A stretch of DNA of 24,916 nucleotides, taken from positions 1 through 24,916 of IMG/VR virus record IMGVR_UViG_3300006919_000402. One strand, 5' to 3'. This DNA comes from a virus. Positions 10,917-24,715 of this stretch are shown here, piece by piece. A program made the translations under genes and the position numbers. Position 1 is the first letter of the stretch, and each line of letters starts with the position of its first letter. The notes under the pieces were generated by a model. It was not told where the DNA came from. It saw nothing but the letters and a program-made list of their open reading frames with translations, and ran no database searches.

Positions 10917-11600
10917 ATGACAACTTACACAATAATCGGAGAGACAAAGGGAGCGCCTGACAACACGCAAAACAATCTCCTGCACATTTATAGCCAAACA
11001 CTTTCGTCAGGGGCTCGAGTCGCTCAAGGTGACGGGACTGGGCTCGGCTTGGTTGTTTGGTCGGATTCTGTAGGTATAGAAAACTCATACGGTTTTAATC
11101 ACCGGATTTATTCTGACGCATCAGAAAACAGAACGGCAAATTTCCCTGATCAAGATGGTTTGGTACAGGTTTCGCAAACTTCTAAGCTTTCTTCTGATTT
11201 TTCAACCTCAAGCGACCTTCCTCAAGAAGTTTCTGGTTTGACTAAATCTCTTGATGCCAACGCGATTTACAAAGTAAACGGGTATTTTTTGGTTAGGGCG
11301 TCAGACCATTCGCATCCATTGCATCCTCGCGTGACTGCTCAGAACGACACTGTGGAATCTCTAAATTTAAAATTTTGCGCTAACGACGAATGTTTGCCAG
11401 TCAATGCACTTGATACAGACGCGGAGTTTTCGACCTTTACCACCCCAGACAACACTCCCGAGATTATTACAGTCGAGGGAATTTTAAAATTAGATTCTTC
11501 TTTTGGTTACGAATCAATCGGAATTGAAGTCAGTAGCAAGACCAGCGGGCACAGCGTGACTATGATGGCAAATTCGTTTATTAGTTACACAAGAATCTAA
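10917..11600 (+). CDS. probable receptor-binding/tail fibre-like protein
   Basis: A 227-residue protein with the features of small phage adhesins. Residues 40-90 hold a repeat-like stretch (GLGLVVWSDSVGIENSYGF, then NRTANFPDQDGLVQVSQTS), similar to the dRT..lPD..GtV pattern of fibre shafts. The C-terminal 110 residues look like the jelly-roll tip domain seen in many fibres (LDANAIYKVNGYFLVRASD and SVTMMANSFISYTRI at the end). It lies before the tape measure instead of after the hub, which is unusual. An alternative is a head or tail decoration protein, since this tip domain also occurs there. The stop overlaps the tape measure start as TAATG. Confidence 0.5.
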   Translation: MTTYTIIGETKGAPDNTQNNLLHIYSQTLSSGARVAQGDGTGLGLVVWSDSVGIENSYGFNHRIYSDASENRTANFPDQDGLVQVSQTSKLSSDFSTSSDLPQEVSGLTKSLDANAIYKVNGYFLVRASDHSHPLHPRVTAQNDTVESLNLKFCANDECLPVNALDTDAEFSTFTTPDNTPEIITVEGILKLDSSFGYESIGIEVSSKTSGHSVTMMANSFISYTRI

Positions 11601-13252
11601 TGGCTGACAAAAACGTCAAAATCAACTTCAAAACCACAGCGGACGCTCGTGGTGCTAGAGATGCTGAAAAGGGCATCAAAAGGGTTGAGGATAGTGCGAG
11701 AGACACCGAGCTAGCTCTCGACGGCGTTGAGGATTCAGCGAAAGACATACGGCGAGAATTAGACAAGCTTGACGGACTAGATCCAAAAGTCAGAACTGAC
11801 GTAGAAAAGCTTACCAGATCCTTAAACAAGGCGGCATCAAGTGGCCGTCAGATGGCGAGCGCACAAGGCTCAAACGCCAAATCAAACAAAAACGCCGGTC
11901 TTGCCGCGCTGGAATTTTCTCGCGCGGTTGAGGATGCTCAATATGGTGTAAGAGGCATCCTTAACAACATCCCGCAGCTCGTGCAGTTTATGGGAGGAAG
12001 TGCTGGCCTTGCTGGTGCAATTTCGCTTGCGGCGGTTGGTCTGACTCAATTGGTCGAACGACTTCAAAAGACTGACGATGCTGTCAAAAAGACGGCGGCG
12101 AATGTAAAAGTAGCAAGAGACCAGATTGATGAGCTTTATGAGAAATCGGCAGAAGACGGAACTTCTGGACTGAGAACTCAAATCGGATCTGTAATCGATC
12201 AGCTAGATCTTCAAAGCGATGCTCTTGAGCGCAACACAATGCTTCTGCAAGAAAAGCGGAAGGCCGAGTTGGAAATCGCCAAACTTACCGAAGATCTAGC
12301 ACTGCAAGAAATCGCAAGAGCGGAAGCTGCTCTAGAGATTAGCCCTGAGCAAGCGGCAGAACAAAGGAAGCAGATTGCTATCACTCGACTCCAAAGCCAG
12401 AAAGAAGAGGAGATCCTCAAAGCAAAAGAGAAAGTCGAACTCATCGAAAAACAGAGATTTGCAGCGGCAGAGCAAAAATTGCAACTCGAAGAAGAAATTG
12501 CTCGACGAGAAAAACAGTTTGCCGAAGAGCGAGACAAAAGGAATCAGCTGCAAACCCTAAGAGAAACAGCTGAAAAAAGAATAGAGGCCGCAGAAAAGAA
12601 GAAAAAAGAGACTAGATTCTTTTTTGGTGTAGGAGATGAAGCTGGAGAGGAAATGATCCGGCAAGGTCGCGAAATGTTTGGCGAACAAGAGCGCGAGCAG
12701 CTTGCCAGACAAGAGGCTAGGGTGAAAGCCTTAGAGGACTCGATCACGCAACTCAAAGAGGCTAGATCGGCAGCAGAGGAGCAGCAAATGCAGCTCTCCG
12801 TTGCCCAAGGCGAGGCGTTCAATTTGCTCCAACTTACCGAGGAGACAGAAACAAAAACTGCGGAATTAAAAGAGCAAATTCTCGAGGCAAAAACTAGCAC
12901 TCAACTAGCTCAAAAGGCTAGAAGTGAATTTTCCAGTGGTGTCGCTGAACTGCAAAAAGCTGCCGAAAACTCTTCGAATCTGGTCGAAGTTGATCGAAAG
13001 CGTGTTGAGACTGCAAACGAGCAGATGAGGCAAATCATGTCGGATGACACTCTCACAGCTCGAGAGCTAGGCCAGACGAGTCAAGTTCTTGGTCGTTTGA
13101 CCGGAACAGTTGTAGGAGCGACAAAAGAAAACACTCAGATGATTCAGCGGCTACAAAATACCGTCGATCAACTCAGCCAAATTATAAGCACAACCAAAGC
13201 CCAAAACATCAACTTGACTCAAAGGCTCAACAATCAGAACTCAAGGCGATGA
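11600..13252 (+). CDS. tail tape measure protein
   Basis: A 550-residue helical protein. Long charged coiled-coil segments (about 20-80 and 200-480, very rich in Glu, Lys, Arg and Gln) flank one hydrophobic patch (GGSAGLAGAISLAAVGL, about 132-148). That patch is typical of tape measure proteins, which set tail length and may enter the host membrane. By the usual rule of about 1.5 Angstrom per residue it would give a tail near 80 nm. It overlaps the preceding gene by TAATG and the hub gene by ATGA. The bias to A and G codons reflects its Glu/Lys content and is not a sign of transfer. Confidence 0.82.
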   Translation: MADKNVKINFKTTADARGARDAEKGIKRVEDSARDTELALDGVEDSAKDIRRELDKLDGLDPKVRTDVEKLTRSLNKAASSGRQMASAQGSNAKSNKNAGLAALEFSRAVEDAQYGVRGILNNIPQLVQFMGGSAGLAGAISLAAVGLTQLVERLQKTDDAVKKTAANVKVARDQIDELYEKSAEDGTSGLRTQIGSVIDQLDLQSDALERNTMLLQEKRKAELEIAKLTEDLALQEIARAEAALEISPEQAAEQRKQIAITRLQSQKEEEILKAKEKVELIEKQRFAAAEQKLQLEEEIARREKQFAEERDKRNQLQTLRETAEKRIEAAEKKKKETRFFFGVGDEAGEEMIRQGREMFGEQEREQLARQEARVKALEDSITQLKEARSAAEEQQMQLSVAQGEAFNLLQLTEETETKTAELKEQILEAKTSTQLAQKARSEFSSGVAELQKAAENSSNLVEVDRKRVETANEQMRQIMSDDTLTARELGQTSQVLGRLTGTVVGATKENTQMIQRLQNTVDQLSQIISTTKAQNINLTQRLNNQNSRR

Positions 13253-14910
13253 TTACCATTTCAGGAGCACAAGGAGCATCTTTCGGGCCTGATCAAATAC
13301 CTTTTGGAGATCTGGCTTCATCTGGCAATCTAGTATTTCAGTCTCTAGGCGTTGATGAGTTGACCTTTTCAATCAATCCCGCTTTTTTGGACTCTAGGGA
13401 TTTTCAAATCCCGCAAGAAGGACAAACCATTGAACTGTTCCAATCTTCTCAAAGGATTTTCAAAGGTATTGTCTCAAAAGTGTCAAATGAGTGGGGATCT
13501 GGTTCTCTTTCTGTCGATGTCTTGGTTTCCGGCCCTTTTTGGTGGCTTGAGCAAACCTCGCTGACCGAAATAGTAGGAACTGGAGCCAATGAGGCGGAAA
13601 GGCCGCAATTTAGGTGCGAGCTCGGAGCAATAGAAGACCATGTGACGGCGCTGTTTAGACGGATGATTGAGATCGGGCTCCCTGTCCAACTGGGCGAGAT
13701 GGATTCGCTTTACGACATACCGACAACAACGTTTCAAAATGTTTCTTTCGCTAGAGCACTTTCTGAGCTGTTGCGGCTAGTTCCTGACGCGGTTGGTTGG
13801 TGGGATTATTCAGGAAGTGAAGATCCTGCCTTTCGCATATCACGACGAAATACGTACGCAGCTCAACAGTTTACGCTTGGGGTCGATCCTGTCATTTCTG
13901 GATCTTTAACAGCAGAATACTCGCTGAAAATCGAGAGGGTTTCGGTCCCTTACGCCGAAAGGCTCGATGATGGCAGTATTTCGTTCAAAGAACTCAATGC
14001 TGGGCCTAACTACGGGACGAGGCAAGTTGTTCCTGTCAGCGGTCCCGAATTGGTTGATTTTGTGCCGCCGGATCCGATTGATTCGGTAACGGTCTCGACT
14101 GTCAACATCCTCTCAAATTCGGTAAGTTTAAACATGAACTCTCTGGAATCTGTCTGGGAGTTTTGGCAACAATGGTCTGAGAGGTATCCTAGCCCCGCAG
14201 CAACGCGAACCCCCACTGAGTGGACTAGTGGCACAAACCCCTCGGATTATTACCCTGAAGGTTTAAGGCCTTACGCGTATCTGGAAGACGGGACAAAGGT
14301 TGACATCGCAACGGATAATCGTTGGGCGATTAGCTACTCTCCAGACAATGAGATTCCTAGCTGGCTTAAAGATGTCGAATCTGTTCAAAACGCCAAAATC
14401 AGAGGGACCGTTTGGCTATTTGTTGACGCTGCTTTTGATGGTCAGGATTGGCTCTTGGAACTGATTAACGAGGCCGATTACGTACGAACCGAAGTAGGAG
14501 GCGAGAACAACTTAGACCGTCATTTGTTCTTTGATCTCGATTTTGATGTTGTGCTTTTAGATCGAACGCTGACGGATCAAACATTTTACAAGCCTTTGGC
14601 TTACATCTTTGAAACTCCTCCGCCTAATTTTGCAAACAATCTGAGAATTGCTCAAAATTGGTTGCCTTATGTAGGAAATTTGAAATTGCAGCCAGATCAA
14701 GATTTGTTTACCCGGCGGATTGGCTCGACGATTAACGTGCTGGGAGGGCGGAGTGCTTGGGAGCAGATGGGAGGACTCGTTCAAGGGGAAACGTTCGATT
14801 TGTTTAGCAAAGAGCAAACTTTAAACCTTGGACTGCCTGAGAGGCTTTCGGGAGAAACTCCAGTTACTAGGCTTGAAAGATCCAGCTCTGACAGCTTGAT
14901 CATCTTGTAA
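13249..14910 (+). CDS. tail hub/baseplate-like protein
   Basis: A 553-residue protein placed directly after the tape measure, where the tail hub is encoded. The N-terminal region is beta-rich (ELTFSINPAF, GQTIELFQSSQRIFKGIVSKV, SLSVDVLVSGPFWWLEQTSL), as in the first barrel of gp27/gp44-type hubs. A helical insert (TTTFQNVSFARALSELLRLVP) and strand-rich parts with WWDYSGSEDPAFRISRRN follow. The C-terminal 200 residues are less structured with many aromatics. No peptidase or lysozyme motif is seen. It is the last large gene of the plus-strand block: no fibre gene follows. Confidence 0.65.
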   Translation: MITISGAQGASFGPDQIPFGDLASSGNLVFQSLGVDELTFSINPAFLDSRDFQIPQEGQTIELFQSSQRIFKGIVSKVSNEWGSGSLSVDVLVSGPFWWLEQTSLTEIVGTGANEAERPQFRCELGAIEDHVTALFRRMIEIGLPVQLGEMDSLYDIPTTTFQNVSFARALSELLRLVPDAVGWWDYSGSEDPAFRISRRNTYAAQQFTLGVDPVISGSLTAEYSLKIERVSVPYAERLDDGSISFKELNAGPNYGTRQVVPVSGPELVDFVPPDPIDSVTVSTVNILSNSVSLNMNSLESVWEFWQQWSERYPSPAATRTPTEWTSGTNPSDYYPEGLRPYAYLEDGTKVDIATDNRWAISYSPDNEIPSWLKDVESVQNAKIRGTVWLFVDAAFDGQDWLLELINEADYVRTEVGGENNLDRHLFFDLDFDVVLLDRTLTDQTFYKPLAYIFETPPPNFANNLRIAQNWLPYVGNLKLQPDQDLFTRRIGSTINVLGGRSAWEQMGGLVQGETFDLFSKEQTLNLGLPERLSGETPVTRLERSSSDSLIIL

Positions 14911-17230: not shown

Positions 17231-18136
17231 TTAGGAAACGGTGATGTCGAGACGCTTTGCAGCGGCGGCGTTGTTCACATAAGCGGCCTCGGTCCACTCG
17301 GTGATGACTTTTTCGCCAAAGTCCTTCTGGACAACGCGAACGCCTCCAAATGGATTGTTGCGAACGCGGAAAGTCTTGAACGCTGACGGGTCAAACATAT
17401 CAACCGACTCGCTTGAGTAGTAGATCCACACGTCAGTGGTAAGAGCCGCAGACTTCGTGCTAGTCGATCGGAACTTGGTGTCAAAGACAGACGTTGACAT
17501 CATGCACTGAGTATCTGGATTCAAGAAAAGAGAACCAATGGCGCTAATTTGTGGCGCTGCGGTCGCTGCTCCGGGATAGCGGTCGATCACGGTGCTGTTG
17601 TTCTTGAAAGCTTCCCAAGCGCCAAGGTTGAAAACGATGCGGTTAGGGAGGAGGCCAATCTGGTCAGCGATCTGCTTCATCTTTTCATCGATTGCGGAAA
17701 TCACATCAGTGGAAGATCCCCAAGTCTGAGAATCAGCACTCACGCCAGCCCGGAGAGTGGTCAGGGTCTCGTTGAGGCGAGAGTTGCCAGCCTGAGAAAC
17801 AAGATTGCGAACACGAGCCTCGCGAAGAATGCGAGAACCTTCGCCAGTGGTAGCGCGGTCAAGCTCGTGGTTGTCAATCATGTCATGCAGAGCGTAAGGC
17901 TGAAGGCTGACGTTGACACGCTCGCCATCAGTTACGACAGCAGAGGAGTCTCCACCGATTGCACGGCGTGCGTTCGGGGTCTGAAAACCAGAGCGTTGTC
18001 CGTAGTCGATGATCGAAAACTCAGCGGCTCCGGTTGGAACGACTGGAGCGAGAAAGTCAGCAACTGGGCTTGAAGTATCTTGGAACAGTCCTTTAGCGAA
18101 CTGATTCAGAACGGAAATATTTGCGGAAGTAGCCAT
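17231..18136 (-). CDS. major capsid protein
   Basis: A 301-residue protein at the end of the head operon, after the protease-scaffold and decoration genes, where the HK97-fold shell subunit is normally encoded. It starts with a helix (ISVLNQFAKGLFQ) and has the strand- and loop-rich pattern of the fold: FSIIDYGQRSGFQTPNARRA, SLQPYALHDMIDNHELDRAT, a long helix with VRNLVSQAGNSRLNETLTTL, and DVWIYYSSESVDMFDPSAF near the end. No long N-terminal delta domain is visible, in keeping with a separate scaffold. It is followed by a strong terminator. I do not assign a Pfam family. Confidence 0.85.
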   Translation of the reverse strand: MATSANISVLNQFAKGLFQDTSSPVADFLAPVVPTGAAEFSIIDYGQRSGFQTPNARRAIGGDSSAVVTDGERVNVSLQPYALHDMIDNHELDRATTGEGSRILREARVRNLVSQAGNSRLNETLTTLRAGVSADSQTWGSSTDVISAIDEKMKQIADQIGLLPNRIVFNLGAWEAFKNNSTVIDRYPGAATAAPQISAIGSLFLNPDTQCMMSTSVFDTKFRSTSTKSAALTTDVWIYYSSESVDMFDPSAFKTFRVRNNPFGGVRVVQKDFGEKVITEWTEAAYVNNAAAAKRLDITVS

Positions 18137-18584: not shown

Positions 18585-19079
18585 TTAAGCGCCAAAGGCT
18601 TCAGGATCGATTTGAGCAGCAAGCTCCCACTTGACATCGAAAGAAGCATTTTCGCCAACTTGGTCGGAGGCTTTAGCCATAGCTGCCTCAATTCTTACTT
18701 CTGAGCTTCCAGTTTTTTCGCCGCCTGTTTTGACAATGGAGTCTTCAAGGCCAGCGTGAATCTTTGGCAGCTTGGAAAGAATTTCTTCGGCAAAAGTATC
18801 GCCAGCTTCGATCTTCTCGACAAACTTGGCTTTGGTGTCTTCGTCTTTAGGAGCGATACGACCTTCCGAAACGGCGGCTTTTACGAGAGACTCAGCGCGT
18901 GACTTGTTTGCTTCAGCTGCTTTAGCCGCAAGCTCGTCTCGCTCTTCTGTAATTTCTGCAAGAGATGCCTTGGCGGTCTCAGCGTCATTTTTCAGGGCTT
19001 CAATGGCTGCAACTGCGGCGGCCTCGGCGGTTTCGGTGTCCGGCTCAATTGAGAGAGCGGCAAGAATAAGATCAGACAT
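18585..19079 (-). other. possible internal start giving a free scaffold (Z-like)
   Basis: An in-frame ATG at 19079 lies just after the protease domain and would produce a 164-residue scaffold alone. AAGGAGG occurs 23 bases upstream, too far for a normal ribosome site; closer to the ATG the sequence is A-rich, like other starts in this window. An 11-base exact copy of the late box (CGGGGACCACT) lies at 19168-19178. The nested arrangement is known in Mu; its use here is inference. Confidence 0.4.
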
Positions 19080-19586
19080 TTTTTTAGTATCAGTTTTTTC
19101 CGCCTCCTTATCGGATGCAGCTATGCGAGGAATCTCTCGGAAGGCTGGCTCGTTGACCAGTGCTCCCAGTGGTCCCCGTTTTGGAAGTCCGGCAGGGACT
19201 CCGTTTCGCCCAAGTAAAAAGGTTGGCGAGAAGTAAGAATAGTCTTTCGACTCGATTGCTTTTCTACCCGCTCCAGTCCATTCAAGTTCAGCCATCAATC
19301 CCTCACCCTCGACGTAATAAAAGCTTTTAGGCAGCGCAGAGGCTGGCCCTTTGTCGTTGTGATCAAAATCGAAAACAGGGCGCACGTTAGCCGAAAGCCT
19401 TTTCTCAAGATCCCTCTGGAACATGGAAGCGATTTTTTCGCCCATGTAGGCCTCCATTTTTACCTCTACGTTTTTAGGCTTACCGTTGACGCTTGGGGTA
19501 ATAGTATGCACGCCCTCGGGGATATAAACGATAGACGCAAATTCCCCTTTTTCCGGCAAAGAGTAATCAAGCGCGCAAATAAGCAT
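18585..19586 (-). CDS. head maturation protease with fused scaffold (Mu I-like)
   Basis: A 333-residue protein of the Mu I type: an N-terminal serine protease (about 1-150) joined to a C-terminal scaffold (about 170-333). The protease part shows VFDFDHNDKG with the likely catalytic His76 and YSYFSPTFLL with Ser117/Ser120, a layout of the U35/I-protein family. The scaffold is Ala/Glu/Lys-rich coiled coil (DAETAKASLAEITEERDELAAK). In Mu the scaffold Z is made from an internal in-frame start; here an ATG at 19079 fits that role. The start at 19586 is 54 bases after a GGGGACCA box (copy C). The protein should cut the scaffold after assembly. Confidence 0.82.
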   Translation of the reverse strand: MLICALDYSLPEKGEFASIVYIPEGVHTITPSVNGKPKNVEVKMEAYMGEKIASMFQRDLEKRLSANVRPVFDFDHNDKGPASALPKSFYYVEGEGLMAELEWTGAGRKAIESKDYSYFSPTFLLGRNGVPAGLPKRGPLGALVNEPAFREIPRIAASDKEAEKTDTKKMSDLILAALSIEPDTETAEAAAVAAIEALKNDAETAKASLAEITEERDELAAKAAEANKSRAESLVKAAVSEGRIAPKDEDTKAKFVEKIEAGDTFAEEILSKLPKIHAGLEDSIVKTGGEKTGSSEVRIEAAMAKASDQVGENASFDVKWELAAQIDPEAFGA

Positions 19587-19618: not shown

Positions 19619-19822
19619 CTATCCTCTTGACTGGTCCCCAGATTCTAAGTCGTCAATAATGTTAAAATTTATCGTCATCATTGACGCTAGGACAGACGTG
19701 GCATTTTCTCTTTCAAGTCCTAATTCGACAAGCCGAGAAATCGCTGAATCAAAATCGATTTGTTCAGTGAAAAAGTCGTCGTAAATCGCAGTGATTTGCT
19801 TGTCTATTTCTTCCTCATCCAT
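19619..19822 (-). CDS. small acidic hypothetical protein after MuF
   Basis: A 67-residue acidic protein (MDEEEIDKQITAIYDDFFTE, then DFDSAISRLVELGLERENATSVLASMM), probably two or three helices of a UBA-like kind. It overlaps the MuF gene by 19 bases and ends 32 bases before the protease-scaffold start. I do not recognise it. Its position could make it a partner, inhibitor or chaperone of the metallopeptidase tail of MuF, or a small assembly factor. The GGGGACCA box copy C lies across its last codons, so this gene also holds a control element. Confidence 0.55.
   Translation of the reverse strand: MDEEEIDKQITAIYDDFFTEQIDFDSAISRLVELGLERENATSVLASMMTINFNIIDDLESGDQSRG
19624..19640 (-). promoter_or_regulatory. 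GGGGACCA box, copy C (before the protease-scaffold gene)
   Basis: On the minus strand TGGGGACCAGTCAAGAGG shares the GGGGACCA core and the trailing GAGG with copies A and B. The first base is 54 bases from the start codon at 19586, the same distance as in copies A and B. It lies within the end of the preceding small gene, so coding constraint could also explain it. Confidence 0.35.
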
Positions 19823-21366
19823 CCCCTTTTTTCAAATATGTTAGTAATTGCCTCAGAAATCAAAGAGAAATCATCAGGCTCCCATTGACCAATTTCCTCA
19901 CGGTTGCGTCTGGCAATTTCGGCAAGAAGTTTAGAATCTTGGCTCTTTTCGGCTATCCATTGAGAATAAGCTCGCGCCCATCCTTCATGGAAGGATAAAA
20001 GATAAGTTTTGTATTTTTTAGATGTTTGCGCCTCTTGGATTCTTGCATACCCTTCAGATTCTAAGTAAGCTTTTCTAAACTCAGCAAATTCCGGCCCATA
20101 GGAGCCATAAAATCCCCTGTATAATTTATTTTCCCTAGGGAATAAATTAGAATAATCCTCTTGGTTATATTTGTTCTCTCTTGCGTTAAAGGCTTGATGA
20201 TCAAGCCAATGACCTATTTCATGCGCCATTGTAAGCTCGCTTCCTTTGACACTGCTTAATTTAATTGAGTTTGATCTATGAGAGTAAACACCTCGCGTTC
20301 TAGTGGCTCTTGTTTGCTTGAAACCTATTTCCTCTAAAGGGCCATCACCGTGAACTTTTTGGATTGCGTCCAAAGTTCTTTTTTTCATACCACCAACCTT
20401 TTTACTTACTCCTTTTTGGGTCACTATCTTGTCGGCAAAGTTACTTCCTCCAGAAGCTGGTTCGTCTTCTGTGATCAATTGGATAGTGTCGCCTTTATCC
20501 TCAATTGGTAAACCTTGCGCAGCTCTGCGACCTCTCTCGGCTGCGTCTGGCGCTTCGTATCCTCGCAGCTTCAGCAATAGCTTGCGTTTTAGATCAGGAT
20601 CGACGTTTTTCATTGCTGCCCCAAGTTTTGAGTTTAGACCTCTCTTTGTGTCCGGTTTAATCTTTTCGACTGGCAAACCCAGCGCAATAGCTTCTTCCCG
20701 GTCAACGTCTTGCAACCCCATTCCGCTGTTGAATCCAAATGGAGCCCATGGAACGCCAAACCCTCCAATTTTCGGATCGTTTTGGTAATTCGCCCAATAT
20801 TCAACGTCCGATTTCAATCTGACATCCCCTTCGCCTTCGGCATGTCTAAGCCTTTTGACTCTGACAATTCGGTCACGCACAAATCTTTGGGCGGGGACTC
20901 TTTTTAAAATGGTAGGAGTTTGCCCCTGTTTCCATTGCCCAAAACCGAAAGCCTGTCTCAAATTTGTGTCGTATATAAGCTTTAAACGATTTTCAGAGCG
21001 CAGATCAGTAATGTCTTTTTCATCTACCTCAAAAAACTCATCTTCCTCGGTAACCATTGACTCTTGAATCATAAACTCGCGCATTGTTTGCACAAACGTA
21101 GCTCTGTCTCCTCCGCTCAACATCCGCACAGTTTTACCGTTTGGGTCAATGACTTCTTTAGTTGCTTGTTGCAAGGTGTCTGAAATAAATTTTTTTGCAC
21201 GGTTGAGGAACCGCATATTTTCGACGTTAGCGGAAAAGAATGACCTCTGTGCAACTTCTTCCCTTTTGCTTCTCCACAGCGCGGCATTCCACTCTGAAGC
21301 CGGAACAATATCCCGGCTTTCAAGCATTTTGACAGCTTGTTCAAACGGAACCGGTCTTGTAATCAT
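19804..21366 (-). CDS. MuF-type minor head protein with C-terminal HEIGH metallopeptidase
   Basis: A 520-residue fusion. Residues 1-235 match the Mu F/SPP1 gp7 head morphogenesis family: an N-terminal helical region with EWNAALWRSKREEVAQRSFF, the hallmark LKLIYDTNLRQAFGFGQWKQ (128-147), RFVRDRIVRVKRLRHAEG (161-178) and a loop with PWAPFGFNSGMGLQDVD. This protein sits inside the prohead near the portal and can be ejected with DNA. Residues 340-475 carry a zincin: SELTMAHEIGHWLDHQAF (HExxH at 382-386) and the downstream glutamate in LSFHEGWARAYSQWI (E461). It is coupled to gp31 by ATGA. Such MuF fusions are known as polymorphic toxins in some prophages; the substrate here is unknown. Confidence 0.82.
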   Translation of the reverse strand: MITRPVPFEQAVKMLESRDIVPASEWNAALWRSKREEVAQRSFFSANVENMRFLNRAKKFISDTLQQATKEVIDPNGKTVRMLSGGDRATFVQTMREFMIQESMVTEEDEFFEVDEKDITDLRSENRLKLIYDTNLRQAFGFGQWKQGQTPTILKRVPAQRFVRDRIVRVKRLRHAEGEGDVRLKSDVEYWANYQNDPKIGGFGVPWAPFGFNSGMGLQDVDREEAIALGLPVEKIKPDTKRGLNSKLGAAMKNVDPDLKRKLLLKLRGYEAPDAAERGRRAAQGLPIEDKGDTIQLITEDEPASGGSNFADKIVTQKGVSKKVGGMKKRTLDAIQKVHGDGPLEEIGFKQTRATRTRGVYSHRSNSIKLSSVKGSELTMAHEIGHWLDHQAFNARENKYNQEDYSNLFPRENKLYRGFYGSYGPEFAEFRKAYLESEGYARIQEAQTSKKYKTYLLSFHEGWARAYSQWIAEKSQDSKLLAEIARRNREEIGQWEPDDFSLISEAITNIFEKRGWMRKK

Positions 21367-21971
21367 AATGATTCAATTTTATCAGCAAAAGCTCCCATCC
21401 ATCCCTTTGTAAAGGAATCTTGCAGCAAACGCTCGTCTGGTAATGCTCCGGGCCAAGGTTTTTGTGTCACTTGTTTAACCAAAGCATAAACCGCGCGAAT
21501 GCTACCGCCTTCAGTTTTTTCAAACAAAGCATTTTTTCCTTTTACGCCAAAAAGTTTATTTCCAGTCGCTGATTGATAATCTGAAGCCCTTCTTCCGGCA
21601 GCGTCAGCAATCATCGGGATGGTCAGGGCTTTGGCTTTTTTGGGCCTAATAGTGCCGCCTGTGACCTTATGCGAAAAGAATGGTGCTCCGTTTTGGATTG
21701 TCGCTCCTGTTTTTGTCGCGCTAACAAAGTTCCAACCTAGGATGATATTTTGTGCAAAGCTCCCTGATTGACGACCCGGTCCCGCTAAATACCTTTTTCC
21801 CCTCCATCCGTTTTTTTTGTTGTATTCACGATGATAATCAATCGCCGCGCTGTTTGCTATTTTTGCTCCAGCTTCGTTCAAATTCGCGATTTCTTGACCT
21901 TCAAGCAAAGCAATCAGCTTTCTTAAAGCTGGCTCGGCTTCGTCAACTATATTGACTCCAACCTCGATCAT
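21363..21971 (-). CDS. virion morphogenesis protein (Mu gp31-like)
   Basis: A 202-residue protein resembling Mu gp31 (G) and other virion morphogenesis proteins, which act in head completion and tail joining. It has an N-terminal helix (EPALRKLIALLEGQEIANL), the core ANSAAIDYHREYNKKNGWRG, FAQNIILGWNFVSATKTGAT, the strand pair PFFSHKVTGGTIRPKKAKALTIP, and VYALVKQVTQKPWPGALPDE near the end, typical of the family. It is coupled to both neighbours (portal and MuF) by ATGA overlaps. In Mu the gp29-30-31 order differs slightly, but these three genes travel together. Confidence 0.75.
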   Translation of the reverse strand: MIEVGVNIVDEAEPALRKLIALLEGQEIANLNEAGAKIANSAAIDYHREYNKKNGWRGKRYLAGPGRQSGSFAQNIILGWNFVSATKTGATIQNGAPFFSHKVTGGTIRPKKAKALTIPMIADAAGRRASDYQSATGNKLFGVKGKNALFEKTEGGSIRAVYALVKQVTQKPWPGALPDERLLQDSFTKGWMGAFADKIESL

Positions 21972-23692
21972 CGTTCATATCTCTCAACGCTTCCCGCAAG
22001 CATAGCGGTTCCAATAGCTTCATCGAGAGAGTCTTGAAGAACCTCGACATTTAGCTGATCAAACAACTCAGGAAGCTGGTTTTGTGCTTCGATTAGCGTT
22101 TTAGTGAAATCCTCGTCCGTCACGTTTTTAGACATGGCCAAAGCTGCAAGTCGCTGAAAAAAAGGTTTTACCGGCTTGAGCCATTCCTGTGTAACTCCTG
22201 TCAGGTTTTCTAGAACGTTATTGCTTAGATCGTCAATCGTTGTCGAAAAATCCTCTCCCCGAGCTTTTACTTGCTCGGGAAGAGATTCCAGCACCACTCC
22301 CTTTGTTTCATGAGGGCAAACCATGGCCGCCGTCTCAAGATCTCCTTGAGCACCATCCGGGACGGGCTGAAAAAGGTCTTCTGAATCGGAATCAGGAGCC
22401 GGAACGTTGTGGCGCTTGTGAAGCCAATCTTTTTCTACTGGCAGACCTAACTCTTTAAACAGAATCCGATCACGTTGCGCCATCTCAACCTCGTTCCTTG
22501 AACGTTCAAAATCTGGGCGGATGCACGGGAGCTCTTCAGTTGTGCCATAATTTAATTCGATGAGAGAGGGCAAGAATTGCTCGTTAATAATATCCGAAAC
22601 AAATTCAGCAACTCCCTCAATAACTCCAGATCTCACGCCTTCATGGACTTCTCCCAGTGCTCGGCTTCCGCTAGATCCCACGTCAGTGGTCAGAGTTTGG
22701 CCTAGAATAAACGTATCGCATTGACGATCCGCCATTTCGATAAGCTCTTTTTGAGGCAAAGATGAGGCTGACTTGCTTGCATCAACGAAATTAAGTTTTG
22801 TATTTTCGGGGAATGCTCCCCAACCAGAAGAACCGATTGTCTCGAGCATGGCACAAACCTTTGCCTTGTCGTTTGGATCTGAGTAGTTCGCCCAGCGGAA
22901 TGGGACTCCATAAAGTTGCGAAAACTGAAGTAGCCATTTTAGCCCAAAGGTCGCGGCAAGCCAGTATCCGGTAAGGGCTCTTAATGGCGCGGAAATCGAT
23001 TGATGGCCAGCGTGACCAGAATTTATAGACAGAAGAAACCTGTGAGCAGGAAAATCGACATAGTTTGTCCCATAGTATTGACCATCCGCCGAAAACATAA
23101 GCCGATCTTCGTCGGCGGAATCTAGTGGGTAACCATAAAACCGGGGAGGGCAGACTTTGACCGCTCTAGGCATTAAGGAGTCATTGTCTTGCGTCCATCT
23201 GATTTCAAGGACCTGATGCCCCGCAAAGTAGCCATAAGCTAAATCCTCAATCATTCCCTTGCCGCCTCTTTCGGCAAAAGCGATTCTAGGCTTCATTCCC
23301 TCAAGTGCCTTTTCAGCAAGTGCCGCTTTCTCGATGGCGGAATCATTTGGCTCCTCACCTCTTTCGCAATACGGATCAAAAGAAAAACGAGTTTTTTTAA
23401 CCTCCCGAAACACTTCGGAAAGGTTTTTTTGCAGCCGAGGCCATGTGTCGATCATTGCCTGAAAGAGCAATTGTTGGCGTTGTAGATCTCCTGTAAGTGC
23501 TCCCGCCAGCGTATCCCTTACGTCTCCGGGTAATTGCTCCCGCTCGATTAGCTCAAGCAGCCGATCTCTTGCTTTTGGAGCGACAATGGGATCAAAGTCA
23601 CCGTTTTCAATGGTGCTTTCTTGCGCTTCGATTCGCTCGGAAATATCACGCCGTGGAGGCAGGAAAGATCCTATTGGTGTGCCTGATCTCAT
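21968..23692 (-). CDS. portal protein (Mu gp29-like, DUF935)
   Basis: A 574-residue portal, the dodecameric ring through which DNA enters and leaves the head. It shows the DUF935 pattern: LQRQQLLFQAMIDTWPRLQ, KKTRFSFDPYCERG, AYGYFAGHQVLEIRW, PPRFYGYPLD, SAPLRALTGYWLAATFGLKW, QLYGVPFRWANYSDPNDK and a Gly/Ser loop (TTDVGSSGSRALGEVHEGVR). The C-terminal 130 residues (after about 440) form a helical extension with VLENLTGVTQEWLKPVKPFF. It is the first head gene, 57 bases after the endolysin stop, with copy B of the GGGGACCA box in between. AAGGG lies close before the ATG. Confidence 0.88.
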   Translation of the reverse strand: MRSGTPIGSFLPPRRDISERIEAQESTIENGDFDPIVAPKARDRLLELIEREQLPGDVRDTLAGALTGDLQRQQLLFQAMIDTWPRLQKNLSEVFREVKKTRFSFDPYCERGEEPNDSAIEKAALAEKALEGMKPRIAFAERGGKGMIEDLAYGYFAGHQVLEIRWTQDNDSLMPRAVKVCPPRFYGYPLDSADEDRLMFSADGQYYGTNYVDFPAHRFLLSINSGHAGHQSISAPLRALTGYWLAATFGLKWLLQFSQLYGVPFRWANYSDPNDKAKVCAMLETIGSSGWGAFPENTKLNFVDASKSASSLPQKELIEMADRQCDTFILGQTLTTDVGSSGSRALGEVHEGVRSGVIEGVAEFVSDIINEQFLPSLIELNYGTTEELPCIRPDFERSRNEVEMAQRDRILFKELGLPVEKDWLHKRHNVPAPDSDSEDLFQPVPDGAQGDLETAAMVCPHETKGVVLESLPEQVKARGEDFSTTIDDLSNNVLENLTGVTQEWLKPVKPFFQRLAALAMSKNVTDEDFTKTLIEAQNQLPELFDQLNVEVLQDSLDEAIGTAMLAGSVERYER

Positions 23693-23749: not shown

Positions 23750-24409
23750 TTAAACCTTTGATCTGATGTCTTGAAAATATGCAACAATTCCATCACAATA
23801 TATTTGCGCTATCAAATCTTGGTTTCCATCCATCAAAACCCACTCTTTCGGGCTGCTGCCGAAAAAAGGTTCGCAGATGACTGCTGGTGGTTTTACCATT
23901 GTCACAAAATGTCCGCCACGATCCTTCCGCTCGATCGGCTTCGCCCCGCGATCTTTCTGAGCAACAGACTTAGATTGGTGCGCCTTATGGATGCAAAGGG
24001 CCAGTCTCTTACCTTCCGCGCTGGGTGCATAGTAAAGGTATTCGTATCCTTCCGCCGAAGACGATGAAAAACTGTTAAAGTGTAGCTCGATGGCTACGTC
24101 CACCTTGTTCTTGCTAATCTCTTTTGATAACCACCTCATCGCGCCGCCGTAGGACTCAGATGGGTAATCGTCGATAATGACGGAAGCAATGCCGCGTTGC
24201 TTGAGCTTTTTTGCAAGTTGAGTTGCAACCTCTGAGTTGTAAATCCATTCAGTCACCCCGCCAACAGACCGCGCGCCCTTGTCACCTATACGGCTGTGTC
24301 CAACGCATATTGCGACCTTCCCGATCTTCTTTGGTTTACGTTTTGCGGCCTTTCTCGCTGCTTTAAAGGTAGCAATTAGCTCAAGTATTTTATCTAGTAG
24401 TCCACTCAT
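23750..24409 (-). CDS. endolysin: N-acetylmuramoyl-L-alanine amidase (Amidase_3-like)
   Basis: A 219-residue zinc amidase, expected to cut the bond between N-acetylmuramic acid and the peptide in the cell wall. The zinc ligands are visible: GHS with His38, a glutamate at about 54 (GGVTEWIYNSEVA), His110 in ELHFNS, and the catalytic Glu180 in ICEPFF. The first 28 residues form a basic amphipathic helix (ELIATFKAARKAAKRKPKK), not a signal peptide, so release depends on a holin. It overlaps the lipoprotein stop by ATGA. The position between spanin genes and portal fits a lysis cassette. Confidence 0.87.
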   Translation of the reverse strand: MSGLLDKILELIATFKAARKAAKRKPKKIGKVAICVGHSRIGDKGARSVGGVTEWIYNSEVATQLAKKLKQRGIASVIIDDYPSESYGGAMRWLSKEISKNKVDVAIELHFNSFSSSSAEGYEYLYYAPSAEGKRLALCIHKAHQSKSVAQKDRGAKPIERKDRGGHFVTMVKPPAVICEPFFGSSPKEWVLMDGNQDLIAQIYCDGIVAYFQDIRSKV

Positions 24410-24642
24410 TTACCTATGATGATCGCGCGACGATAGCTGTAGTCGCTGTGGAATTTCTGGCCTCTTCCTTCCAACTGGCCGTCCTTAAAACGGTAGACCT
24501 GACCGTCAACCAGAGTTATTGTGGGAGGATCGTAGAGTGAGCTTTTGTTCAAAGCGGAGTCTTTTTGAAAGACGCTCGATCCGCAGCTTGGCAGCAGGAG
24601 AACCGTCAGCAGCGAGATCGTCGATTTGGTCTTCCAGTGCAT
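24406..24642 (-). CDS. lipoprotein, probable outer-membrane spanin subunit
   Basis: A 78-residue precursor with a signal and lipobox: MHWKTKSTISLLTVLLLPSC, where Cys20 would be lipidated. The mature part is about 58 residues and includes PPTITLVDGQVYRFKDG and FHSDYSYRRAIIIG. It begins inside the gene at 24506-24715 in another frame and runs past its end, the Rz/Rz1 overlap pattern of spanins, which fuse inner and outer membranes at the end of lysis. The longer frame to 24678 is unlikely. The Pro-rich feature of many o-spanins is absent, so it could also be a different phage lipoprotein. Confidence 0.6.
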   Translation of the reverse strand: MHWKTKSTISLLTVLLLPSCGSSVFQKDSALNKSSLYDPPTITLVDGQVYRFKDGQLEGRGQKFHSDYSYRRAIIIGK

Positions 24643-24715
24643 AAATGTAGCGTCTTCTTTTCCAATTAAGCATAGCAACGTATGCTTTGATCAGCTCAGT
24701 GAGCAGCTTGATCAC
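24506..24715 (-). CDS. basic helical protein overlapping the lipoprotein gene (i-spanin-like position)
   Basis: A 69-residue protein started by a GTG that overlaps the holin-like stop as GTGA. It reads as a continuous amphipathic helix (LTELIKAYVAMLNWKRRRYI), then YALEDQIDDLAADGSPAAKL and a basic end. Coiled-coil character fits an inner spanin, but the hydrophobic N-terminal part is short and amphipathic, not a clear membrane span. The lipoprotein gene is nested in part within it in a different frame, which supports a spanin pair. If it lacks a membrane anchor it may have another lysis role. Confidence 0.5.
   Translation of the reverse strand: MIKLLTELIKAYVAMLNWKRRRYIYALEDQIDDLAADGSPAAKLRIERLSKRLRFEQKLTLRSSHNNSG

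What the first reader, a model, noticed from the sequence alone, without database searches (positions are those of the whole stretch)
19804..21366. MuF head protein fused to an active-looking HEIGH metallopeptidase
The N-terminal half is a standard MuF/gp7 minor head protein; the C-terminal half has HExxH and a downstream glutamate in the order of a zincin. MuF proteins are packaged in the head and can enter the cell with DNA, so this may deliver a protease into the host at infection. MuF toxin fusions are described mainly in prophages of Gram-positive bacteria; here the lysis genes point to a host with an outer membrane.
Basis: partly seen in the sequence, partly recalled or inferred. Interest (0 to 1): 0.62.

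Follow-up and report, generated by a model that had tools for sequence, protein, structure and literature searches.

The report
Phage head protein carrying swappable protease
This phage gene joins a minor head protein to a zinc-protease domain that related phages exchange as a cassette, nearly always with a tiny gene overlapping its end; it looks like a protease toxin with its own inhibitor, a known design with a previously unnamed protease and partner.

Summary
The N-terminal half is a divergent MuF minor head protein. Pfam misses it, but a profile comparison with nine Pfam-MuF proteins gives 99.4% probability. The C-terminal ~190 aa form a zincin: HEIGH 382-386, D389 and E461. AlphaFold confidence is high (pLDDT 89.8), and the nearest solved fold is the anthrax lethal factor catalytic domain (VIA Z 9.8). 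HExxH, E461, R465, Y467, Q469 and H339 are invariant in 76 homologues from many phyla.

The domain is a swappable cassette. MuF proteins with nearly identical N-termini end in this zincin, another HExxH domain, something else, or nothing. Two close relatives share 98-100% identical DNA over the protease alone.

Its start codon lies inside the protease's terminal Gly-Trp codons. In held-out tests a homologue is the top-scoring ORF just downstream of the protease in 59 of 77 families (1.8 expected). It is absent below short MuFs.

Best reading: a MuF polymorphic toxin, meaning a virion-delivered protease with a candidate immunity protein. That kind is known (Jamet 2017; Bxa 2024), so this is a new variant. 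Delivery, toxicity and immunity remain inferred.

The parts
20647..21366 (-). MuF minor head (capsid) domain, residues 1-240
   Evidence: PHROG_220 E 3.8e-7; hhalign 99.4% against nine PF04233 proteins; lies between portal/gpG-like genes and the head protease/capsid genes
20377..20646 (-). linker, residues 241-330; the upstream exchange boundary lies at about residues 284-344 in close relatives
   Evidence: DNA identity along the gene falls or rises sharply here between close relatives
19807..20376 (-). zincin metallopeptidase domain, residues 331-520
   Evidence: 76-member alignment A5; AF2 pLDDT 89.8, pTM 0.89 on residues 316-520; PHROG_4529 E 2.8e-10
20350..20352 (-). H339, invariant residue of the VHGDG motif
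   Evidence: invariant in A5
20209..20223 (-). HEIGH (382-386): predicted zinc ligands H382 and H386 and catalytic E383
   Evidence: invariant HExGH in A5
20200..20202 (-). D389 (HExxHxxD)
   Evidence: nearly invariant in A5
19984..19986 (-). E461 (E-G-W-A-R-A-Y-S-Q), predicted third zinc ligand on the following helix
   Evidence: invariant E, R, Y, Q in A5; in the AF2 model residue 146 of the construct opens the helix numbered 144-160
19619..19822 (-). 67-aa acidic companion gene, candidate immunity protein; its ATG (19820-19822) lies within the GGA-TGG codons of G515-W516
   Evidence: homologue is the top-scoring downstream ORF in 59 of 77 peptidase families, held out; small ORF absent after short MuFs; dN 0.265 vs dS 2.24 between window and L002
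21363..21971 (-). 202-aa gene between portal and MuF, in the position of Mu gpG (virion morphogenesis)
   Evidence: position; no confident family hit
21968..23692 (-). Mu-type portal protein
   Evidence: PF06074 E 6e-69
18585..19586 (-). Mu I-like head maturation protease/scaffold (the phage's own head protease)
   Evidence: PF10123 E 1e-22; PHROG_328 E 1.3e-30
17231..18136 (-). major head protein
   Evidence: PHROG_1005 E 1.6e-23

Best explanation
A MuF polymorphic toxin/effector. Shown: a MuF head domain fused to a conserved zincin, in the head gene module, whose C-terminal domain is exchanged as a cassette and is coupled to a small overlapping gene. Inferred: the MuF domain places a few copies in the procapsid near the portal, the protein enters the next cell with the DNA, and the Zn-dependent domain (H382, H386, E461 as ligands; E383 as base) cleaves a bacterial protein there. 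The 67-aa companion, translated from a start codon inside the protease's last codons, binds and blocks the protease in the producing cell or lysogen. The substrate is unknown.
For: Catalytic residues invariant over 76 divergent domains. High-confidence zincin model; best solved fold is the lethal factor catalytic domain, Z 9.8, about two Z units above the next family. C-terminus polymorphic on near-identical MuF backbones (L154 vs L158; Akkermansia-type L007/L139 vs L142/L149), with at least 5 forced changes on the N-terminal tree. Domain-limited DNA exchange: L002-L052 98-100% identical over residues 344-504 against 86-98% in most flanking windows. Companion gene: top downstream hit in 59/77 families vs 1.8 expected; a small ORF follows 12/13 families with an HExxH C-terminus and 0/9 short MuFs, Fisher p 2e-5. 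[quoted passage not shown] The same domain plus companion ends large non-MuF proteins in Nocardiopsis contigs, next to kinase, helicase or restriction-enzyme-like genes and not phage genes.
Against: No activity, virion proteomics or toxicity data. In the closest clade the protease domain varies 13-28% between L003, L004 and L052 while the companion stays 91-98% identical, so the pair is not strictly allele-matched as classical immunity pairs often are. The companion's fold is only moderately confident (pLDDT 71.5) and has no clear fold match. No integrase was identified among the window ORFs searched, while MuF toxins are reported only from temperate phages.
Confidence: 0.6

Rival explanations
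1. Injected anti-defence or take-over protease: packaged and delivered as above, but it removes a host defence or regulatory protein to help infection or bias lysis/lysogeny, and is not a toxin against competitors. The companion is then a restraint or chaperone.
For: Same anatomy; Jamet et al. themselves suggest low-toxicity peptidases could guide lysogeny or counter defence. Rapid divergence of the protease relative to the MuF part (dN/dS about 0.3 vs 0.13 for L002-L003) fits an arms race. Weak similarity to M78/CapP-type regulatory zincins.
Against: The domain also ends non-phage proteins in Nocardiopsis with the companion, which is more like a general toxin cassette; many related phages do without it.
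Confidence: 0.25
2. Processing protease: the zincin cuts phage head proteins or its own MuF part during assembly, with no role in the infected cell.
For: MPTase domains in phage proteins can serve autoprocessing (PMC5512222); the gene sits in the head module.
Against: The phage has its own Mu I-type head protease next door. Close MuF homologues in the same gene order lack the domain altogether (L005, L130, L131), so it is not needed for assembly. The same domain is fused to portals and to non-phage proteins.
Confidence: 0.08
3. The companion is a chaperone, packaging adaptor or expression device for the protease domain, not an immunity protein.
For: It tracks the domain across carriers and phyla, yet stays nearly constant while the protease varies among close relatives.
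Against: Different C-terminal domains have different small companions (class B vs A), as expected of cognate inhibitors; experimentally shown MuF-toxin companions are inhibitors (Bsi and BAH for Bxa, PMC11699363).
Confidence: 0.25
4. Structural or inactive zincin-like domain.
For: Only indirectly: one Akkermansia homologue (L109) has lost HExxH.
Against: Full catalytic set invariant in 76 sequences, including the window's closest relatives.
Confidence: 0.04

Closest known systems
MuF polymorphic toxins of temperate phages (Jamet et al. 2017, PMC5576092)
   Same: N-terminal MuF head domain, variable C-terminal enzyme, small downstream ORF; 20% of 191 MuF toxins had a metallopeptidase domain
   Different: Theirs are overwhelmingly in Firmicutes; this zincin family was found here in Verrucomicrobiota, Pseudomonadota, Planctomycetota, Bacteroidota and others, with no Bacillota locus in one single-pattern GTDB scan. 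Whether their metallopeptidases include this family could not be checked, since the supplements are not available.
Bxa (Bacteroides stercoris prophage MuF ADP-ribosyltransferase) and Apk2 (PMC11699363)
   Same: MuF fusion toxin with adjacent immunity genes, Bxa in a Gram-negative host, shown experimentally
   Different: Different enzyme (ADP-ribosyltransferase / alarmone synthetase); no protease
PHROG_4529 and Akkermansia phages Chambord/Chantilly 'head morphogenesis' proteins
   Same: Same two-domain protein: 32% identity over 92% of the length; catalytic motif kept
   Different: Annotated only as head protein / DNA pilot; the protease was not named
Anthrax lethal factor catalytic domain (Pfam ATLF)
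   Same: Nearest solved fold, Z 9.8, rmsd 3.9 over 152 residues; sub-threshold sequence similarity
   Different: Score far below Pfam's cut-off (16.8 vs 27.4 bits), about 16% identity; phage protein with no sign of eukaryotic targeting
LPD1 and zincin-like MPTases of polyvalent proteins (Iyer et al. 2017, PMC5512222)
   Same: Phage-delivered zincin theme; 25 of 36 domains weakly resemble LPD1
   Different: Small two-domain head protein, not a giant polyvalent protein; not matched by Pfam's MPTase models in the scans made

Membership tests
MuF minor head protein (PF04233 superfamily) | direct match to Pfam Phage_Mu_F | tested here: not met
   no hit at E<=1 for the window protein
MuF minor head protein (PF04233 superfamily) | homology to PF04233 proteins by profile comparison | tested here: met
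   A10 vs A11: 99.4%, E 1.2e-21, 190 columns; all nine A11 members hit PF04233. A first attempt with a shallow alignment against a different MuF set found nothing
MuF minor head protein (PF04233 superfamily) | position in the head module after the portal | tested here: met
   portal - gpG-like - MuF - companion - Mu I protease - capsid
Zincin metallopeptidase | HExxH plus downstream acidic ligand on a following helix, conserved | tested here: met
Zincin metallopeptidase | zincin fold | tested here: met
   AF2 pLDDT 89.8, pTM 0.89; VIA matches are dominated by HExxH metallopeptidases, although Foldseek alone gave no PDB match at E<=0.001
Zincin metallopeptidase | Zn binding and proteolysis | not testable with these tools
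   needs bench work
ATLF / lethal-factor family | Pfam ATLF gathering score | tested here: not met
   14.9-16.8 bits vs cut-off 27.4; fold similarity only
LPD1 (PF18796) | profile match | tested here: inconclusive
   25/36 and 16/54 members match weakly; the window protein itself does not
MuF polymorphic toxin | variable C-terminal domain on a shared MuF domain | tested here: met
MuF polymorphic toxin | cognate small ORF immediately downstream | tested here: met
MuF polymorphic toxin | toxin domain shared with other polymorphic-toxin families | tested here: inconclusive
   same domain plus companion at the end of large non-MuF proteins in Nocardiopsis; their N-termini look WXG-like by eye only, and the PDB search found nothing
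MuF polymorphic toxin | carried by temperate phage | tested here: inconclusive
   window is a 24.9-kb virus record; no integrase among the ORFs searched
MuF polymorphic toxin | toxic to bacteria, neutralised by companion | not testable with these tools
   needs bench work

The most novel reading that the evidence does not exclude
An undescribed protease-inhibitor cassette, a lethal-factor-like zincin plus a small acidic protein whose start codon is embedded in the protease's terminal Gly-Trp codons, moves between phage heads (MuF and portal fusions) and cellular toxin carriers across at least ten phyla, mostly with two membranes. In phages it serves as a virion-delivered protease against bacteria.
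Probability: 0.45. Interest if true: 0.68.

Novelty: new variant of a known kind. Interest (0 to 1): 0.52.

Why it matters
It gives a named, testable protease effector carried in phage heads of diderm hosts including Akkermansia, with a candidate cognate inhibitor and natural swap variants. Whether MuF peptidases kill, disarm defences or steer lysogeny is an open question, and this pair (active site known, companion known, phages without the domain as controls) makes it directly testable.

Tried and rejected
Chance HExxH: rejected by invariance in 76 homologues. Weak Pfam hits (UB2H, TraE, GroEL3, sulfatase): chance-level and inconsistent. Filing under ATLF or LPD1: scores below cut-off. hhalign of a shallow N-terminal alignment against a zinc-finger-type MuF set gave nothing; a deeper alignment against Mu-type MuFs succeeded. 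Foldseek against the PDB gave no E<=0.001; its top viral match is a phage head morphogenesis protein, E 1.3e-10. Companion against PHROGs: nothing consistent; its fold search found no clear match. PDB sequence searches with the protease were uninformative. Literature searches for a phage head / lethal factor fusion found none. Iterative clustering of the small ORFs could over-recruit short acidic proteins, so it was re-tested with each protease cluster held out. In 18 of 77 families the top hit was not the adjacent ORF by the strict window; in two of these (L059, L092) it was an ORF reaching the same place from a start about 190-200 nt upstream.

Full report
Observation. The ORF lies on the minus strand of the window at 19804-21366 and encodes 520 aa. 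HEIGH is at residues 382-386, D389 completes HExxHxxD, and E461 sits in EGWARAYSQ. HExxH alone occurs in 0.8% of shuffles of this protein, so conservation carries the argument.

Head domain. The neighbours are a Mu-type portal, a gene in the position of gpG, a Mu I-like head protease and a major head protein. Pfam Phage_Mu_F does not detect the N-terminal half. PHROG_220 does (E 3.8e-7), and a 31-sequence profile of this N-terminal family matches nine PF04233-positive proteins at 99.4% probability over 190 columns. It is a divergent MuF protein, not a standard one.

Protease domain. Searches with the C-terminal domain found 43 loci in viral contigs and 59 in GTDB genomes: Pseudomonadota, Verrucomicrobiota, Planctomycetota, Bacteroidota, Acidobacteriota, Chloroflexota, Spirochaetota, Deinococcota, Armatimonadota, Cyanobacteria, Actinomycetota and others. 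There was no Bacillota locus, though the GTDB scan used one peptide pattern. In a 76-row alignment H339, H382, E383, G385, H386, E461, R465, Y467 and Q469 (window numbering) are invariant. AlphaFold2 gives pLDDT 89.8 and pTM 0.89. Structural alignment ranks the anthrax lethal factor catalytic domain first (Z 9.8, 3.9 A over 152 residues), followed by other HExxH proteins at 7.4 and below. Foldseek alone gave no significant PDB match; its best viral match is a phage head morphogenesis protein (E 1.3e-10). Sequence similarity to ATLF and LPD1 stays below cut-offs. So this is a zincin family without a Pfam name. PHROG_4529 already contains it, labelled only 'minor head protein and DNA pilot'.

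Cassette behaviour. Fifty-five viral loci share the N-terminal MuF family. Their C-termini fall into four groups: this zincin, other HExxH domains (HEITHAIE, HELAHWL), other extensions, or a short end. On a tree of the N-terminal part these labels are scattered: at least 5 changes are forced for the zincin, and near-identical MuF domains carry different C-termini (L154/L158; L007 and L139 against L142 and L149). Among the window's closest relatives, L002 and L052 are 98-100% identical in DNA over residues 344-504 against 86-98% in most flanking windows. L002 and L003 drop to 63-90% there. The synonymous distance tells the same story: L002-L052 dS 0.019 in the protease against 0.163 in the MuF part; L002-L003 0.542 against 0.156. 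Exchange of the protease domain is therefore recent and natural.

Companion gene. A 67-aa acidic ORF (19619-19822, minus) overlaps the stop of the protease gene by 19 nt. Its ATG lies in the GGA-TGG codons of G515-W516, a Gly-Trp pair conserved in at least 90% of the family, and 34 of 50 representative loci use a start in that position. An HMM trained with each protease cluster held out picks the ORF immediately downstream as its best hit in 59 of 77 clusters, against 1.8 expected from ORF positions. In the MuF family a small downstream ORF follows 12 of 13 non-redundant groups with an HExxH C-terminus and none of 9 short MuFs (p 2e-5; p 2e-4 if a doubtful case is counted). It evolves under purifying selection (dN 0.265, dS 2.24 against L002). 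AlphaFold predicts three helices with moderate confidence. [quoted passage not shown]

Outside MuF. The same domain, with a member of the companion family, ends large non-MuF proteins in Nocardiopsis contigs beside kinase, helicase or restriction-enzyme-like genes. Two members are fused to Mu-type portals. This fits a toxin cassette shared between delivery systems. The identity of the Nocardiopsis N-termini (WXG-like by eye) was not established.

Mechanism and limits. The most likely mechanism is packaging through the MuF domain, entry with the DNA, and Zn-dependent cleavage of a bacterial protein, with the companion restraining the protease in the producer. Packaging, delivery, cleavage, substrate and inhibition are all inferred. 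One result cuts against allele-matched immunity: within the closest clade the companion barely changes while the protease is exchanged. It could still cross-protect, or it could be a chaperone.

Host. The closest cellular sequence is a Porticoccaceae MAG contig. A small ORF overlapping the endolysin gene has a lipobox-like LLPSC, as an outer-membrane spanin would. Both agree with an outer-membrane host; neither proves it.

Verdict. The new elements are the unnamed zincin family centred on diderm hosts, the demonstrated exchange of the domain, and the tightly coupled companion gene.

Noticed in passing
L154-L158, L007/L139-L142/L149: Nearly identical MuF N-termini carry a second, different HExxH domain (HEITHAIE or HELAHWL type) with a different small downstream ORF.
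   Followed up: partly
L122:395-1579, L123:1834-3018: Window-like MuF proteins end in what looks like a PDZ domain instead of a protease.
   Followed up: no
L096, L098, L104 (Nocardiopsis): The zincin plus companion cassette ends 848-1103-aa non-MuF proteins in non-phage surroundings; N-termini look WXG-like.
   Followed up: partly
L044:1117-3582, L027:847-3606: The zincin is fused to a much longer protein in these loci; L044 begins like a Mu-type portal and L027 also looks portal-like by eye (two alignment members match Portal_Mu).
   Followed up: partly
L109:2777-4315 (Akkermansia MAG): Homologue that keeps E..AR.Y.Q but has lost HExxH: a degenerate copy.
   Followed up: no
L005:1-771: Window-like MuF without the protease has an in-frame stop near the contig start: damaged copy or assembly error.
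   Followed up: no
window 24406-24678 (-): Small ORF overlapping the endolysin gene with a lipobox-like LLPSC, a possible outer-membrane spanin.
   Followed up: no
window 11600-14910 (+): Two adjacent ~550-aa plus-strand ORFs, opposite to the head genes, with no Pfam family; one weakly matches an uncharacterised PHROG.
   Followed up: no
L002/L052, residues 344-504 of the MuF protein: Domain-limited DNA exchange: 98-100% identity inside the protease domain, lower in most of the flanks.
   Followed up: yes
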